In this document: piece by piece, positions 2 to 64,000 of the stretch
Numbering within the stretch: position 1 is the first letter of the stretch
How the letters are laid out: each line of letters opens with the position of its first letter
DNA from: Elusimicrobiota bacterium
GTDB lineage: Bacteria; Elusimicrobiota; Elusimicrobia; UBA1565; UBA9628
Direction of reading: 5' to 3'
DNA: 64,000 nucleotides
Assembly (NCBI GenBank): GCA_027451985.1
Contig: DAIDHS010000007.1
Coordinates: forward strand, 1 to 64,000
Notes under the pieces: model-generated
What the model saw: only the letters and a program-made list of their open reading frames with translations
Databases searched by the model: none
What the model was told of the DNA's origin: nothing
Program-made: the position numbers and the translations under genes

Positions 2-481
2 GAAGAGGGGATTATATCGCTCGATCAACTCAAGCAACGGAACGAAGAGCATAAGGACCGTATCGACCAACTTCGAAAGGGTATAATTGAAGTCGATATC
101 GAATTGGCGCGTCAGGGGCTCGATCTCGATTTGGCTACCCTGGAGAAACGGCTCGTTCATTTCCAGAAAGATGTGACGAGCATGCAAACCCAGAAGATTC
201 GGGAACTCATTGACCCGCTGATTTCCAAGGCGCGACTATTCAATGAGAAAATAGAACTGACGTTCTCATTTCCCATTGACCGCGAGTATACGCACGTTTT
301 TGCGCTGGCCGGTACGTCGACAGAAAAGAATTTGAGCCCCCATAGCTCAATGGATAGCAGCATCCGCCTTCTAAGCGGACGATCCAGGTTCGATTCCTGG
401 TGGGGGCAGGTCCCATTTGAATTGCTAGGATCAGGACGACCCCGTAGCCAAGTTACAGGCGCTAGAGCATCCGCCTTCTAA
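2..481 (+). CDS. C-terminal part of a putative large serine recombinase (5' truncated by window edge)
   Basis: The frame is open from the window edge. The visible part begins with a charged coiled-coil stretch (residues about 1-75, many E/K/R/L heptad-like positions), followed by a segment ending in KIELTFSFP. This resembles the coiled coil and terminal beta strand at the C-terminus of large serine recombinases. The catalytic domain would lie to the left and cannot be seen, so the assignment is by inference. The frame does not stop at the end of that domain. It runs on through the tRNA-Arg at 336-408 and stops inside the second tRNA-like copy, so the last 45 or so codons are unlikely to be native. 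This suggests the natural 3' end was altered at an integration junction. It could also be another coiled-coil protein. Confidence 0.4.
   Translation, partial: EEGIISLDQLKQRNEEHKDRIDQLRKGIIEVDIELARQGLDLDLATLEKRLVHFQKDVTSMQTQKIRELIDPLISKARLFNEKIELTFSFPIDREYTHVFALAGTSTEKNLSPHSSMDSSIRLLSGRSRFDSWWGQVPFELLGSGRPRSQVTGARASAF
336..408 (+). tRNA. tRNA-Arg (anticodon TCT)
   Basis: The sequence folds as a full cloverleaf. The acceptor GCCCCCA pairs with TGGGGGC. The anticodon stem TCCGC/GCGGA carries the loop CTTCTAA (anticodon TCT). The T arm is CCAGG-TTCGATT-CCTGG and the discriminator base is A. The D stem is only 3 bp, with a C-C mismatch. CCA is not encoded. The gene lies inside the reading frame of the upstream recombinase-like protein and 29 bp before a decayed second copy of itself. 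Confidence 0.8.
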
Positions 482-515
482 GCGGACGATCGAGGTTCGA
501 TTCCTCGCGGGGGCA
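438..515 (+). pseudogene. Degenerate second copy of tRNA-Arg(TCT), probable attachment-site remnant
   Basis: The 3' part (from the anticodon stem, about 468-515) repeats the tRNA-Arg at 336-408 almost exactly, with the same anticodon loop and TTCGATT T-loop. The T-stem shows compensated changes (CGAGG/CCTCG). The 5' part differs: the acceptor has an A-G mismatch, and about 8 extra bases separate a possible D arm from the anticodon stem. This pattern of conserved 3' half and foreign 5' half is typical of an element boundary that re-created a tRNA end. An independent decayed tandem duplicate is the alternative. Confidence 0.6.
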
Positions 516-46733: not shown

Positions 46734-46784
46734 AAAAAGTGCCGCTCGTCCCTCCATTTTTCGCAATCGCCTCCGTCACTTTTC

Positions 46785-46863
46785 AACGTCTAGGTTTCTA
46801 GACGTTGCCCTAGACGTTGGATTTTCCCTACGTCTGCAATAACAGACGTAGGTGCAGACGTAG
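46785..46863. repeat. Two matching clusters of 9-bp sites (iteron-like)
   Basis: Cluster 1: AACGTCTAG (46785-46793), 4 bp, CTAGACGTT (46798-46806), 3 bp, CTAGACGTT (46810-46818). Cluster 2: CTACGTCTG (46828-46836), 6 bp, CAGACGTAG (46843-46851), 3 bp, CAGACGTAG (46855-46863). Each is an inverted pair followed 3 bp later by a direct copy, around the shared core AGACGT. The layout resembles iterons or operator arrays bound by a dimeric protein. The remaining bases of 46575-46917 hold no credible gene. Confidence 0.8.
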
Positions 46864-46917: not shown

Positions 46918-47685
46918 CTATTTCCCACGTCCCGCCCGCGCTCGCCGGGCCAGTATCTTGCGGGAAATCTTCCGACCGATGAGCTGCTTTTGCGCCAGAT
47001 TCTTGAAGTCTTGCGCCGATTCCCGCCGCACAAAGTCAGCCCGACGCCCGGACTCGACCCAGCTTTTTATCTCCTGGAGTCGGCCCAAAATCAGCTTTTG
47101 CTCCAAGCTTTGCAGGGCGTTGCCGGGCTCCGTGGCCAGTGCCAGTGCCTGGCTTGAGGGCAGGATATCCTGGAGCATCACGTCGCACGCCTTGGCCATC
47201 ACCACGTCCTTAAGCCCGAAGCCGGCAGCGCCCATCTTGGCCAAATCCAGCAGGTCCGCGGTGGATAAGACCCGCGCGGTCATCACGTGGTGCTCGTCTT
47301 GCGGTACCTTTTCCAGCAGTTCCTTTATGGTCTCAAGCGGGAGGTGATAGGCCTTCCGTAGGGTCAGGATGGTTCCCAAAAGCTCCAAATGGTCAGGGTA
47401 AACGTAGTAATCTGCTTTGTCACCGGTGCGATGGACCGGAGCCGGTAAGAGCCCAAGTTTAGCTGAGCTATAGGCCTTAAGCTCCCGCAGGCTGAGCCTG
47501 GATTCCAGCAAAGTCTCGACCACTTCCAGGAAATCCGCATCCTTGACTAGCACTCGCGGCACCGCTGTTCCGGCCTTGTCCGCCTTCCATTTCTCTTGGG
47601 CGTAATACTTCAGCAGACCCTCAAAACCATGGACCGGCAACTTATTTATCTCTTCTTCAGATGGCCATTTCTTCTCATCCATCAT
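46918..47685 (-). CDS. MerR-like HTH protein of the island
   Basis: 255 aa. The central region (about 60-115) has a MerR-type winged helix: SLRELKAYSSAKLGLLPAPV, then DHLELLGTILTLRKAYHLPL and ETIKELL. The N-terminus is acidic, and the C-terminus is strongly basic (RKILARRARAGRGK), suggesting extra DNA contact. Its stop lies 55 bp from the 9-bp site clusters. It is a natural candidate to bind them as an initiator, partition or master regulator protein; this is inference. Confidence 0.7.
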   Translation of the reverse strand: MMDEKKWPSEEEINKLPVHGFEGLLKYYAQEKWKADKAGTAVPRVLVKDADFLEVVETLLESRLSLRELKAYSSAKLGLLPAPVHRTGDKADYYVYPDHLELLGTILTLRKAYHLPLETIKELLEKVPQDEHHVMTARVLSTADLLDLAKMGAAGFGLKDVVMAKACDVMLQDILPSSQALALATEPGNALQSLEQKLILGRLQEIKSWVESGRRADFVRRESAQDFKNLAQKQLIGRKISRKILARRARAGRGK

Positions 47686-60442: not shown

Positions 60443-61105
60443 TTATTGCTGCCACCAGGGCGCCGCGCCGCCAGATGGCTTGGGATTGGAATTCACGGGC
60501 GCGCTTTGTCCCCCGACCTTGGCCTGAAACTCGGGCGCGCTGAAATCCTGCGCCATGGCGGACGCGGCGTTTTTGACGGCCTCGCTCAAGGCCTCTCCAG
60601 CCCGCGGCATATCGGAGTTGCTCCCACCGGTCGTCACGCTGCCCGTGAAGTTCTTGCTCCAAACGACGCCGGAGCGGTCCAAAACCTCGAAGTCCAAGCT
60701 CACCTCGGTGACGATGCGGCTCATGCTTATCTGGACGGAGGTTTGCTCCTGGTTGAAATGCGGCTCGATGAGCAGGTCATAGCCGGTGAAATCGCCCTGA
60801 TTTTGCACCGCCGTCACGCTTTGGAAGACCTGGCGGAAGGTTTCCAGGCTCACTTGTTCCAGGTTCTGCCCGAAGGGGTAGAGCCACGCTCCCAAGGGAA
60901 TGGGCGCGCGGCAGACGTAGGCCTGGTCTTGCGGCGAAACCAGGATGGCGGCGCGCAGAGGAAGCAGTCCTTGCTGGGCGACGACCGTCTCGGCCGGCGT
61001 ATTAATCGTGGCGGTAAAAGTCGCGGCGCAGGCGCCCAGGAAAAACGGCAGGAGCAAAGCGGGCGCGACGCGCCAGGCGCGGGCGGTCAGCGCTGATCGC
61101 TTCAT
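60443..61105 (-). CDS. Lipoprotein, unknown function
   Basis: 220 aa with type II signal and lipobox LGAC (Cys about 26). The mature part has FTATINTPAETVVAQ, ISMSRIVTEVSLDFEVLDRS and GVVWSKNFTGSV, a beta-rich fold of the kind seen in outer-membrane lipoproteins of the LPS or trace-lipoprotein type; the C-terminal 30 residues are low complexity. It overlaps the thymidine phosphorylase gene by 4 bp, so it belongs to that transcript. Confidence 0.75.
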   Translation of the reverse strand: MKRSALTARAWRVAPALLLPFFLGACAATFTATINTPAETVVAQQGLLPLRAAILVSPQDQAYVCRAPIPLGAWLYPFGQNLEQVSLETFRQVFQSVTAVQNQGDFTGYDLLIEPHFNQEQTSVQISMSRIVTEVSLDFEVLDRSGVVWSKNFTGSVTTGGSNSDMPRAGEALSEAVKNAASAMAQDFSAPEFQAKVGGQSAPVNSNPKPSGGAAPWWQQ

Positions 61106-62415
61106 CGGCCGCGAATGACTTTAAGAACGACCGGCGCCCGCCGCGGGCGGCGCGCGCCAATGGCCGCGGCGGACAAGAACTCGGCCTCGCCGGCGCGCAA
61201 GCGCGCGTCATCCGAGGAGTAGAGCACGGCCAAGGTCTCGCCGGCGGCCACGCGGTCGCCCACTTTTTTCTCAAGGCGCAAGCCCGCGCCGTAGTCGAGC
61301 GTTTCTTCCGCGAAGTCGCGCCCCGCGCCCAAAAAGACCGCGGCGCGGCCGACTTTTCGGGCGTCCAAGGCCGTGACGAATCCCGCGCGCGGAGCAGTGA
61401 CTACGCGCGAAGAAGAAGCTTTCGGCAGCAAATCCAAGTTATCGAGCGCGGCCGCGTCGCCGCCCTGCTTTTGCGCGATCAATTTCAAGCGCTTGAAGCC
61501 TTCGCCGGAATCGATGGCGGCCTGCATGCGCTCGGCGCCCGCCTCCGGCGTTTTGGCCAAGCCCGAGAGATGCAGCATCCAGCCGCCCAAGGCCAGCAGG
61601 CATTCCCGGTAATCGGGCGCGGAGGTCTCGCCGCGCAGGACCTCGACCGCTTGGCGCACTTCCAAAGCGTTGCCCACGTAGCGGCCCAAGGGCTGCTCCA
61701 TCGCGGTCATGAGCGCGGCGGACTTAAGGCCCAAAAGACCCGCGGTCTTGACCAGCGCGCGGCCCAAGGCCTCGGCCTCCTTGGCGGTCTTGAAGATGGC
61801 GCCAGAGCCCGCCTTCAAATCGATGACCAGGGCGTCCAAGCCCTCGCAGAGCTTCTTGGACAAGATGCTCGCGACGATGAGCGGCAAGGACGCCACTGTG
61901 GACGTCGCGTCGCGAAGCGCGTAGAGTTTGCGATCAGCCGGGGCCAAGGCTTCGCTTTGCCCAAAGAGGCACACGCCCGCGGACTCGCACTGGGCCAGGA
62001 CCGCCTCAGGGGAGAGCCGCACCTTGAAGCCGGGGATGGATTCGAGCTTATCCAAGGTGCCGCCGGTGTGGCCCAAGCCGCGCCCGGACATCATGGGCAC
62101 GCACAGGCCGCAGGCCGCGGCCAAGGGCGCCAGCGCCAAGGAAATCCCGTCGCCCACGCCGCCGGTCGAGTGCTTGTCGGCCTTGGGTTTGGCGATGCGC
62201 GAGAAATCGAGCTGCGCGCCGGAGCGGGCCATGGCGCCGGTCAAGCCCGCGGTCTCTTTCTCGCTCATGCCGTTCAGGCAGACGGCCATGAGCCAGGCGG
62301 AGAGCTGGTAATCGGGCACGGTGCCCTTGGCGGCCGCATCCGCGATAAAAGCGAGCTCGTCCGGGGCGTGGGCCCTGCCTTCGCGCTTGGCCGCGATGAG
62401 GTCGAGCATTCTCAT
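61102..62415 (-). CDS. deoA: Thymidine phosphorylase (pyrimidine-nucleoside phosphorylase)
   Basis: 437 aa, standard length. It cleaves thymidine or other pyrimidine nucleosides with phosphate to the base and (deoxy)ribose 1-phosphate. The family loop KHSTGGVGDGISLALAPLAA and GRGLGHTGGTLDKLES are intact, with KLCEGLDALVIDLKAGSGA following. It feeds free bases to the Upp enzyme encoded downstream. The CTAG-rich tandem array begins about 18 bp upstream of its start, so transcription into deoA must pass through or start beside that array. Confidence 0.95.
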   Translation of the reverse strand: MRMLDLIAAKREGRAHAPDELAFIADAAAKGTVPDYQLSAWLMAVCLNGMSEKETAGLTGAMARSGAQLDFSRIAKPKADKHSTGGVGDGISLALAPLAAACGLCVPMMSGRGLGHTGGTLDKLESIPGFKVRLSPEAVLAQCESAGVCLFGQSEALAPADRKLYALRDATSTVASLPLIVASILSKKLCEGLDALVIDLKAGSGAIFKTAKEAEALGRALVKTAGLLGLKSAALMTAMEQPLGRYVGNALEVRQAVEVLRGETSAPDYRECLLALGGWMLHLSGLAKTPEAGAERMQAAIDSGEGFKRLKLIAQKQGGDAAALDNLDLLPKASSSRVVTAPRAGFVTALDARKVGRAAVFLGAGRDFAEETLDYGAGLRLEKKVGDRVAAGETLAVLYSSDDARLRAGEAEFLSAAAIGARRPRRAPVVLKVIRGR

Positions 62416-62432
62416 ATATAAAGGATACCGCC

Positions 62433-62619
62433 CCTAGCCAGGCCTGGCCTAGGCCTACCTAGGCCTCTAGACCCTAGATAGGGCCTAGATCCTAGGGAGA
62501 TCCTAGGGTCTGCCAGACCTGATCCTAGGGGGTAGACCCTATCTGGCCTATCTGATCCTAGGGTGATCCTAGGGCCTAGGCGGCCTGATCCTAGGGGGGA
62601 TCCTAGGCCTAGACTAGGC
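62433..62619. repeat. CTAG-rich tandem array: 11-bp units in 33-bp higher-order repeats
   Basis: About 17 contiguous 11-bp units. Six exact GATCCTAGGG (62488, 62499, 62521, 62554, 62565, 62587) and one GATCCTAGGC (62599) are spaced 11, 22, 33, 11, 22 and 12 bp apart. From 62488 the units group into four 33-bp monomers starting at 62488, 62521, 62554 and 62587, each opening with GATCCTAGGG; the first three close with a CT…CT unit and the fourth with CTAGACTAGGC. There are 16 CTAG and 10 CCTAGG in 187 bp, very high for a tetramer that is rare in most bacteria. The array covers the stop of the membrane winged-helix gene and precedes deoA. No known repeat class fits. Confidence 0.9.
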
Positions 62620-63303
62620 CCCTGAGTTGGCGTCTGGCAATGAATAATGGGCATCGCTGTCACCGCGTTTTCCGCTTTGGGTCAAAACTCCGTCCCGGAC
62701 CAAGCCGCGCAGGACGATGCGCGCGTAGCGCCGGGACACCCCTAGGATTTTAGCGCATTCCGAGGCGCTGATGCGCCCGCCGTGGGCGCGGCAGTAGTCC
62801 ACAATCGCGTCCTTGCGGTCGCGCGGGGTGGGCTCCGGAGCCGGAGGCGGGGGAATTGGCCCGGGCGCGGGATGCGGCTTAGGCGGAGTTGGAACCGGAC
62901 GCGGGCGGGGCCGCCGCAGCGGGACATCGGCCAGAGCCTTGGAAAATGACGCGAGAACCAGCAGGGCCGCGGTCTCCAGCGCCAAAAGCAAAATGTTTTT
63001 CGGCGGGAAGAAACCATGGACGGGCTTGTCCTGCGCCCAAGCCTCGGCGACCCAGAGCAGGAAAACGGAGATGAGCCAAACGGCCGCGGGCGCCCCGCCC
63101 CAGTCTCCTTCCATCCCGCCCGAACGTTGCCGCCAGCGTTCGGCTTCGCCCAAGACGCCGTCCGCGATCATGACGGCGAAGGCGGCGGCCAGCCAAGCCC
63201 AGAGACGTTCAGCGGCGGTGGAGGAGGGGTGAAACGCCAGGGCGGCGTCCAGGCCGAAGGCCGCAATCGCGGCGACGATGAAACGGAAGCTCACGGCGCC
63301 CAT
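62614..63303 (-). CDS. Membrane protein with Pro-rich linker and C-terminal winged helix
   Basis: 229 aa. Four hydrophobic segments lie in residues 1-125 (FIVAAIAAFGLDAALAF, LWAWLAAAFAVMIA, VWLISVFLLWVAEAW, ILLLALETAALLVLASF). A proline-rich linker follows (about 130-160, PRPRPVPTPPKPHPAPGPIP), then a winged helix (AIVDYCRAHGGRISASECAK, ILGVSRRYARIVLRGLVRDG). The arrangement implies a membrane-tethered DNA-binding protein. Its stop codon lies inside the CTAG array, and its own gene ends where deoA's upstream region begins. Family unknown. Confidence 0.7.
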   Translation of the reverse strand: MGAVSFRFIVAAIAAFGLDAALAFHPSSTAAERLWAWLAAAFAVMIADGVLGEAERWRQRSGGMEGDWGGAPAAVWLISVFLLWVAEAWAQDKPVHGFFPPKNILLLALETAALLVLASFSKALADVPLRRPRPRPVPTPPKPHPAPGPIPPPPAPEPTPRDRKDAIVDYCRAHGGRISASECAKILGVSRRYARIVLRGLVRDGVLTQSGKRGDSDAHYSLPDANSGA

Positions 63304-63389
63304 AATCGCTCAAAGCGGTCGGGCGATTGTAGCAAAAGGGAACGCCGCAGAAACCGAACGATTTTGCATCCACCGCCAAGTTTAAATGG

Positions 63390-64000
63390 TTACCTTTGCC
63401 CGCTCTTTAAAAGAGCCAAGTACTTTTGAGCATACGGATCGTGCGCCAACCCCGGCTCGGCGGATAAAATGTTCTTCGCCTTTTCTACGCGTCCCATTGC
63501 CGCTTCGTCCATGGCCCAATAAATTCGGGAAGCCGGAGATTGCGGAGATATCCGGTAGAGACGCTCGTACGCTTTCGCCGAATCGGCCCAATGACGAAGA
63601 TTAAATTGCGCGTAGGCCAGATTCTGCCAACTGTCGGGATCATCGGGCTTCAGGCTGATCGCACGAGTCGCTAAACTGACCGTGGCCGGCCAATTACCCA
63701 CGCTGCTCATGGCCCAAGCCCATTCGGACCATGCGCGCGAATACGTGGGAGACATCTTTGTGGCAATCTGGAAACACTGCACGGCATCCTTCCAGTCTTT
63801 GTTTTTTCCGAATGCCACGCCTAGATTGACATAACCGGCTTGTGCACCTGGTTCATGCATCCCGCCTTGCACCAACCCCTTTAGCTCAGCGACGTCTGGA
63901 TGCGAGAAGTAAGAGGCTTTTATTGAAGCGATTAAAACGGCGGTGAGCCAAGACGGGTGAAAATGTTCGCTGATTATGGCGGCCTGCAGAGCTTTTTCCG
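63390..64000 (-). CDS. TPR protein (N-terminal part beyond the window)
   Basis: The frame is open to the right edge (first full codon ends at 63998), so the start is missing. About 200 residues of TPR units are visible: AGYVNLGVAFGKNKDWKDAV, PATVSLATRAISLKPDDPDS and WQNLAYAQFNLRHWADSAKA, then a short C-terminal tail. The window-edge segment (LTAVLIASIKASYFSHPDVA) is also helical. Function unknown; solenoid proteins of this kind are frequent in this genome. Confidence 0.75.
   Translation of the reverse strand, partial: EKALQAAIISEHFHPSWLTAVLIASIKASYFSHPDVAELKGLVQGGMHEPGAQAGYVNLGVAFGKNKDWKDAVQCFQIATKMSPTYSRAWSEWAWAMSSVGNWPATVSLATRAISLKPDDPDSWQNLAYAQFNLRHWADSAKAYERLYRISPQSPASRIYWAMDEAAMGRVEKAKNILSAEPGLAHDPYAQKYLALLKSGQR

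What the first reader, a model, noticed from the sequence alone, without database searches (positions are those of the whole stretch)
62433..62619. CTAG-rich array with strict 11-bp phasing and 33-bp super-repeats between a membrane winged-helix gene and deoA
Seen directly: seven GATCCTAGG cores spaced 11, 22, 33, 11, 22 and 12 bp apart, forming four 33-bp monomers, with 16 CTAG in 187 bp. CTAG is normally strongly under-represented in bacterial DNA, and an 11-bp period puts each palindromic core on nearly the same face of the helix. Possible roles are a phased binding array for an oligomeric protein, a curved or cruciform DNA element, or a selfish minisatellite. The 33-bp period also keeps one minus-strand frame open with an 11-residue LGS-type repeat, but that frame relies on the rare CTA codon. 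The adjacent winged-helix protein is a candidate binder. I know of no described element like this.
Basis: partly seen in the sequence, partly recalled or inferred. Interest (0 to 1): 0.88.

Follow-up and report, generated by a model that had tools for sequence, protein, structure and literature searches.

The report
Helix-phased palindrome islands beside regulator genes
The odd CTAG-rich repeat is one of a genus-specific family of short gaps between genes, each filled with different palindromic DNA words repeated about once per turn of the double helix, so it looks like a landing strip for a DNA-binding protein (possibly the membrane-bound regulator encoded next door), although binding has not been tested.

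Summary
The array is real: 7 GATCCTAGG cores, 16 CTAG in 187 bp. It fills the gap between a membrane-anchored winged-helix gene (TM-wHTH) and deoA. Its DNA has no homologue in 57 related genomes, but it is not alone. In 862 kb sampled from its own genome I found 8 intergenic islands built from CG-poor palindromic words. They share a vocabulary that is rare elsewhere: islands are 0.18% of the bases but hold 43% of GTATAC and 27% of CCTAGG. The islands have different words but a common repeat period of 10.75-11 bp (combined score 9.2, 0/300 shuffles; 60 ordinary intergenic regions show none). In this genus, TM-wHTH genes with an intact, readable 3' end carry their own, differently worded island straight after the stop codon. 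Two such genes from two species are 96% identical in the membrane half and unrelated in the DNA-binding half and the island. Folding shows no strand bias, there are no T-runs, and the genome lacks the REP transposase. Best reading: DNA-level, helically phased binding-site arrays, the TM-wHTH being the leading candidate binder. Main rival: recombinogenic selfish hairpin DNA. Helically phased CCTAGG arrays also abound in rumen Bacteroidales.

The parts
62433..62619 (.). palindromic-word island (CTAG array): 16 CTAG, 10 CCTAGG, 7 GATCCTAGG; fills the TM-wHTH/deoA gap
   Evidence: (no AA/TT, one CG)
62488..62607 (.). core of the array on an 11-bp lattice; GATCCTAGGGN slots at 62488, 62499, 62521, 62554, 62565, 62587 (and 62599, off by 1 bp), separated by diverged 11-mers
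   Evidence: lattice print-out; 33-bp register
62614..63303 (-). TM-wHTH gene (229 aa): N-terminal membrane helices, proline-rich linker, C-terminal winged helix (about residues 160-225); its stop codon lies in the CTAG at the island's edge
   Evidence: only sub-threshold HTH/wing hits; pLDDT about 88-90 over residues 160-210
61102..62415 (-). deoA-type pyrimidine nucleoside phosphorylase, next gene downstream; island ends about 18 bp before its start
62416..64000 (-). window part of a ~5.8-kb block (to C7:68213, beyond the window) that separates deoA from its usual upstream partner, purine nucleoside phosphorylase
46775..46850 (.). second, smaller island in the window: CAACGTCTAG/CTAGACGTTG and CTACGTCTG/CAGACGTAG words, downstream of a MerR-like gene (46918-47685 -, sub-threshold Pfam hit)
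   Evidence: (fold z about -5.7)

Best explanation
The array is a DNA-level, helically phased cluster of palindromic binding sites for a dimeric, cooperatively binding HTH protein; the leading candidate is the TM-wHTH encoded next door. Occupied sites would tether or silence this interval between the wHTH and deoA genes (roadblock, repression or membrane anchoring). Shown: the array and its cores; the genus-wide family of islands; their shared ~11-bp period despite different words; the recurrent position after TM-wHTH stop codons; the change of DNA-binding domain together with island between two species. Inferred: that a protein binds, which protein, and the effect on deoA.
For: (1) Ten islands from two species of the genus, with different words, share a period of 10.75-11 bp: combined score 9.2, 0/300 shuffles; 9.18 without this array; 7.3 also without the two islands that share 39 bp. 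60 ordinary intergenic regions of the same genome score -1.2 at 11 bp. (2) Words are palindromes: CG-free palindromic hexamers 4.95 per 100 bp in islands against 0.65 elsewhere. (3) GATCCTAGGG occurs 10 times in the genome, 9 of them in islands; GTATACSGGGGGT occurs in 57 genomes only in this genus, 5 of 5 times in islands. (4) TM-wHTH genes in the genus with an intact, readable 3' end carry an island right after the stop codon, each with its own words: GATCCTAGG, TTGGCCGGCC, TATATA/GGGGG, ATCTAGAT/GGGAGAT; one remnant locus is weak. The C8 locus was found by the island scan and the C157 locus by the protein search, independently. (5) G000:C8 and G001:C271 are 96% identical over 600 bp (membrane part and linker), then diverge through the wHTH and the island. 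(6) In the 33-bp register the GATCCTAGGG slot is invariant in 4 copies while the third 11-mer varies at 7 of 11 positions (post hoc). (7) No strand bias in folding.
Against: Binding is untested. This array alone peaks at lags 11 and 33 but not in the cosine periodogram (best 8.75). The island lies 3' of the putative regulator, not at its promoter. Several islands flank other genes (ORF6N, HsdM, YCII, hydrolase) and mix vocabularies. The change of wHTH and island together may only reflect linkage across one breakpoint. Islands were chosen for being repetitive. In G011 an island coincides with truncation of a TM-wHTH gene, which looks more like invasion than service.
Confidence: 0.45

Rival explanations
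1. Recombinogenic selfish repeat: palindromic words spread and expand by hairpin-driven slippage, template switching and gene conversion between islands, and islands mark rearrangement joints; no cellular function is needed.
For: Islands exchange sequence (39 bp identical between C14b and C18, other shared blocks). Most fold better than shuffles, z -2 to -10. They sit at joints: the nucleoside-phosphorylase gene pair is split here, TM-wHTH homology breaks near islands, a TM-wHTH is truncated at an island edge in G011. Whole vocabularies turn over between close homologues. Organelle palindromic repeats described as selfish are a precedent (PMC2670323), and LIMPs can mediate rearrangements (PMC4524435).
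Against: Slippage does not explain a common period of one helical turn across unrelated words, nor the invariant GATCCTAGGG slot beside diverged slots. No mobilising enzyme was identified.
Confidence: 0.3
2. RNA-level element: an intercistronic mRNA hairpin that terminates, attenuates or processes the TM-wHTH-deoA transcript.
For: Lies between two codirectional genes; RNA fold -110 kcal/mol, z -3.2 on the mRNA strand.
Against: No TT or AA in the array, so no U-tract. Energies and G-U counts show no consistent preference for the sense strand over nine islands or 29 Bacteroidota arrays. No Rfam match. One island (C23) folds no better than shuffles.
Confidence: 0.12
3. REP/BIME or MITE-type elements mobilised by a RAYT or other transposase.
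For: Intergenic, palindromic, word sharing between islands.
Against: No Y1_Tnp (PF01797) in the 95%-complete genome, while controls ring; no common element length or unit; vocabulary differs between islands.
Confidence: 0.04
4. Chance low-complexity minisatellite or assembly artefact.
For: Fragmented genome (107 contigs); no reads available to check copy number.
Against: Same kind of island at many loci and in a second species, intact genes on both sides, 0.24 cores expected against 8 in the window, period test 0/300.
Confidence: 0.04

Closest known systems
Iteron centromeres and partition sites bound by wHTH or RHH proteins (tubC/TubR, parC/ParR, pNOB8 AspA sites; from memory)
   Same: Tandem 11-12 bp sites in helical phase beside the gene of a small DNA-binding protein; AspA is among the Foldseek hits of the wHTH model, though only at E about 0.01
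   Different: Chromosomal, many islands per genome with different words, palindromic CTAG/GTATAC words, membrane-anchored wHTH; no ParA/TubZ partner was sought
TAACTGA intergenic direct repeats of Beggiatoaceae, Cyanobacteria and Bacteroidetes (PMC4679880)
   Same: Short words in arrays in intergenic gaps, proposed regulator-binding sites, function unknown
   Different: One fixed non-palindromic heptamer, mostly just upstream of start codons, proposed post-transcriptional role; here many palindromic words with helical phasing and no strand bias
Short palindromic repeats of Volvox organelle DNA (PMC2670323) and LIMP repeats of Lobosphaera mitochondria (PMC4524435)
   Same: Intergenic regions filled with hairpin-forming palindromic words; LIMPs can mediate rearrangements
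   Different: Organellar, dominated by one or a few related motifs; helical phasing not reported in the passages read
REP/BIME elements (RAYT-associated; PMC8266576, PMC3733652, abstracts only)
   Same: Intergenic palindromes with proposed DNA-binding and architectural roles
   Different: 20-40 bp palindromic units associated with TnpA-REP; no Y1 transposase here
CCTAGG arrays of rumen Bacteroidales and Chitinophagaceae (found here; no description found in 8 paper searches)
   Same: CCTAGG cores with helical spacing (10 bp; 11 bp in Chitinophagaceae), variable spacers, in gaps between codirectional or convergent genes
   Different: One word dominates a whole genome, CTAG about 7-fold depleted elsewhere, unrelated taxa, no TM-wHTH link tested

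Membership tests
REP/BIME (RAYT-associated) | RAYT / Y1 transposase in the genome | tested here: not met
   PF01797 absent from G000, present in 5 of 14 control genomes
REP/BIME (RAYT-associated) | dispersed conserved 20-40 bp palindromic unit | tested here: not met
   islands share words and blocks of 8-53 bp, no common unit
MITE / IS remnant | homologous copies elsewhere | tested here: not met
   array DNA matches only itself in G000 and 57 relatives; no match in plasmids or phages
Intrinsic terminator | stem-loop followed by a T-run | tested here: not met
   no AA or TT in the array
Known structured RNA | match to an Rfam family | tested here: not met
   no match at E <= 1 for 62000-63400
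A-tract curved DNA | phased A-tracts | tested here: not met
   AA/TT frequency 0
Phased protein-binding array (iteron/centromere-like) | sites repeated at the helical period | tested here: met
   period 10.75-11 bp over ten islands, absent from ordinary intergenic DNA; in this array lags 11 and 33
Phased protein-binding array (iteron/centromere-like) | cognate DNA-binding protein encoded next door | tested here: inconclusive
   TM-wHTH genes adjoin islands repeatedly, but several islands adjoin other genes
Phased protein-binding array (iteron/centromere-like) | demonstrated specific binding | not testable with these tools
   needs gel shift, footprinting or DAP-seq
Simple tandem minisatellite | mutations spread evenly over the unit | tested here: inconclusive
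   invariant GATCCTAGGG slot, diverged third slot, but small numbers and post hoc

The most novel reading that the evidence does not exclude
TM-wHTH genes and the arrays behind them form a swappable specificity module: each membrane-anchored winged-helix protein reads its own palindromic word in its own helically phased array, and composite arrays elsewhere are shared targets, giving an undescribed chromosomal system for anchoring or silencing loci at the membrane.
Probability: 0.18. Interest if true: 0.88.

Novelty: new variant of a known kind. Interest (0 to 1): 0.7.

Why it matters
It turns one curious repeat into a testable class: intergenic islands whose words differ but whose helical spacing is shared. 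If the words are read by the neighbouring membrane-bound regulators, this would be a modular DNA-to-membrane system whose specificity is swapped together with its target array. If not, it is a clear bacterial case of selfish palindromic DNA with a one-helical-turn growth step. The similar CCTAGG arrays in many rumen Bacteroidales suggest that helically phased palindrome arrays are common and overlooked.

Tried and rejected
DNA homologues of the array: none elsewhere in G000, 57 relatives, plasmids or phages. Short CCTAGG triples occur in 9 more family, order or class members, but they are small and mostly not spaced by 11 bp, so they were not counted as the same thing. A general CTAG-clustering rule for viruses was rejected: ATCCTAGG triples are no commoner in viral contigs (18) than same-composition palindromes (25, 63, 35). 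RNA-level selection was tested by sense/antisense asymmetry and not supported. RAYT/REP rejected. G002 (301 kb, no TM-wHTH) shows no island of this kind with the combined palindrome and repeat detector; G003 shows one weak window and G011 none, although G011 has other repeat islands beside TM-wHTH genes.

Full report
OBSERVATION. The array is present as described: 16 CTAG in 187 bp and seven GATCCTAGG. Written in 11-mers from 62488 it reads GATCCTAGGGA GATCCTAGGGT CTGCCAGACCT | GATCCTAGGGG GTAGACCCTAT CTGGCCTATCT | GATCCTAGGGT GATCCTAGGGC CTAGGCGGCCT | GATCCTAGGGG..., that is, a 33-bp unit whose first slot is invariant while the third diverged. AA and TT are absent and there is one CG, in a window where CG is the second commonest dinucleotide. 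Lags 33 and 11 stand out (z 4.6 and 3.3).

SETTING. The array fills the space between the stop codon of a minus-strand gene (62614-63303) and deoA (61102-62415, same strand). The upstream protein has membrane helices, a proline-rich linker and a C-terminal winged helix modelled with confidence (pLDDT about 88-90); fold matches are generic winged helices with weak E-values. In 29 of 29 family members examined, deoA is directly preceded by a purine nucleoside phosphorylase without any island. Here that gene lies ~5.8 kb upstream on the same strand, so the TM-wHTH, its island and two TPR genes occupy a block that split an ancestral gene pair.

A FAMILY OF ISLANDS. No homologous DNA exists elsewhere in G000 or in 57 relatives, but the word GATCCTAGGG, ten times in the genome, falls in other strange intergenic stretches on contigs 14, 18 and 23. 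A vocabulary-free repeat scan of 862 kb found eight islands, including a second one in the window at 46775-46850. They occupy 0.18% of the sampled bases yet hold 43% of GTATAC, 27% of CCTAGG, 56% of ATCCTAGG and all five CCTAGGTA; CG-free palindromic hexamers are 7.6-fold enriched (partly circular because islands were chosen as repetitive). GTATACSGGGGGT occurs in 57 genomes only in this genus and only in islands. Islands share blocks of up to 39 identical bp. G002, without TM-wHTH genes, shows none in 301 kb.

HELICAL PERIOD. Autocorrelation of ten islands from two species peaks at 10.75-11 bp: combined score 9.2, null 95% maximum 3.65, 0 of 300 shuffles; 9.18 without this array, and 7.3 also without the two islands that share sequence. 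Ten random genome windows peak at 6 bp instead, and 60 ordinary intergenic regions score -1.2 at 11 bp. The focal array taken alone does not peak at 11 bp in the cosine test (best 8.75), although lags 11 and 33 do.

LINK TO TM-wHTH GENES. With a profile of four members, the family was found in G000, G001 (same genus) and G011. In the genus, all four genes with an intact and readable 3' end carry an island at the stop codon, each with other words; G001:C262, a remnant lacking the membrane part, is weak, G000:C2 is a truncated copy without an island, and two others run to a contig end. Of the four, G000:C8 came from the island scan and G001:C157 from the protein search. C8 and C271 are 96% identical in DNA over 600 bp covering membrane part and linker, then lose similarity through the winged helix and the island. 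C29 and C262 differ by loss of the membrane module. In G011 one island coincides with truncation of the winged helix, and another copy of that island (88% over 212 bp) lies upstream of a different TM-wHTH gene; two G011 members are followed directly by another reading frame without an island.

MECHANISM. Folding is better than shuffled for most islands, but sense and antisense strands do about equally well and G-U pairs show no preference, T-runs are absent and Rfam is silent, so an RNA role is not favoured. The common helical period across unrelated words is best explained by proteins that bind palindromes on one face of the DNA. The adjacent TM-wHTH is the leading candidate for this array, but islands next to ORF6N, MerR-like, HsdM and other genes mean that other binders, or one general binder, are possible. 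The chief rival is recombinogenic selfish DNA, supported by the rearrangements around the islands. Neither binding nor expression could be tested.

BEYOND THE GENUS. Many hits are rumen Bacteroidales, whose CTAG-to-CTAG spacing is mostly 10 bp (380 of about 490 short spacings) with near-random 4-bp spacers and CTAG depleted to 0.12-0.18 of expectation outside arrays; Chitinophagaceae use 11 bp. Twenty such genomes, picked because they had one hit, hold up to 118 CCTAGG triples against 0-1 for the reversed control. These arrays lie between codirectional or convergent genes, almost never divergent ones (41/19/2 among those classified). Eight paper searches found no description.

NOVELTY. Phased iteron arrays and intergenic palindromic repeats are known kinds. 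A genus-wide set of islands with locus-specific words, shared helical spacing and repeated attachment to membrane-anchored winged-helix genes fits none of them exactly; I call it a new variant of a known kind until binding is tested.

Noticed in passing
L061, L113, L134, L144 and about 60 other Bacteroidales loci: Arrays of CCTAGG every 10 bp with variable 4-bp spacers fill intergenic gaps in rumen Prevotella-type genomes; up to 118 triple matches per genome against 0-1 for the reversed control, and CTAG is about 7-fold depleted elsewhere.
   Followed up: partly
L076, L096, L101, L108, L139, L166 (Chitinophagaceae): CCTAGG arrays with 11-bp period arranged as two inverted arms around a centre, like long hairpins.
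   Followed up: partly
window 62416-64000 and L029 1-4213: A ~5.8-kb block with TM-wHTH, island and two TPR genes with closely similar C-terminal parts separates deoA from the purine nucleoside phosphorylase that is its neighbour in 29 of 29 family members.
   Followed up: yes
L047 2513-3112 and L243 (G001:C271): Membrane half of a TM-wHTH gene 96% identical between two species, then an abrupt switch to a diverged winged helix and an unrelated island.
   Followed up: yes
L232 8150-8520 and L236 14020-14390 (G011): Another island family (AAGTGGGCGCCCACTT and GGGTACAGTC words), 88% identical over 212 bp at two places beside TM-wHTH genes, one gene being truncated at the island edge.
   Followed up: partly
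upstream of L047 2535 (G000:C8): A gene start resembling Vsr mismatch endonuclease (sub-threshold Pfam hit) lies divergently next to a TM-wHTH-island pair; Vsr activity is one known cause of CTAG depletion (the last point from memory).
   Followed up: no
L033 8870-9394 and L038 15524-15769: Two ORF6N-domain genes each have an island directly upstream, with the first ~145 bp of flank and gene start conserved between them and the rest diverged.
   Followed up: partly
window 438-515: ARAGORN calls an odd tRNA with a four-base anticodon (tccg) close to tRNA-Arg at 336-408; the two share an anticodon-arm sequence and look like a duplicate (repeat peak).
   Followed up: no
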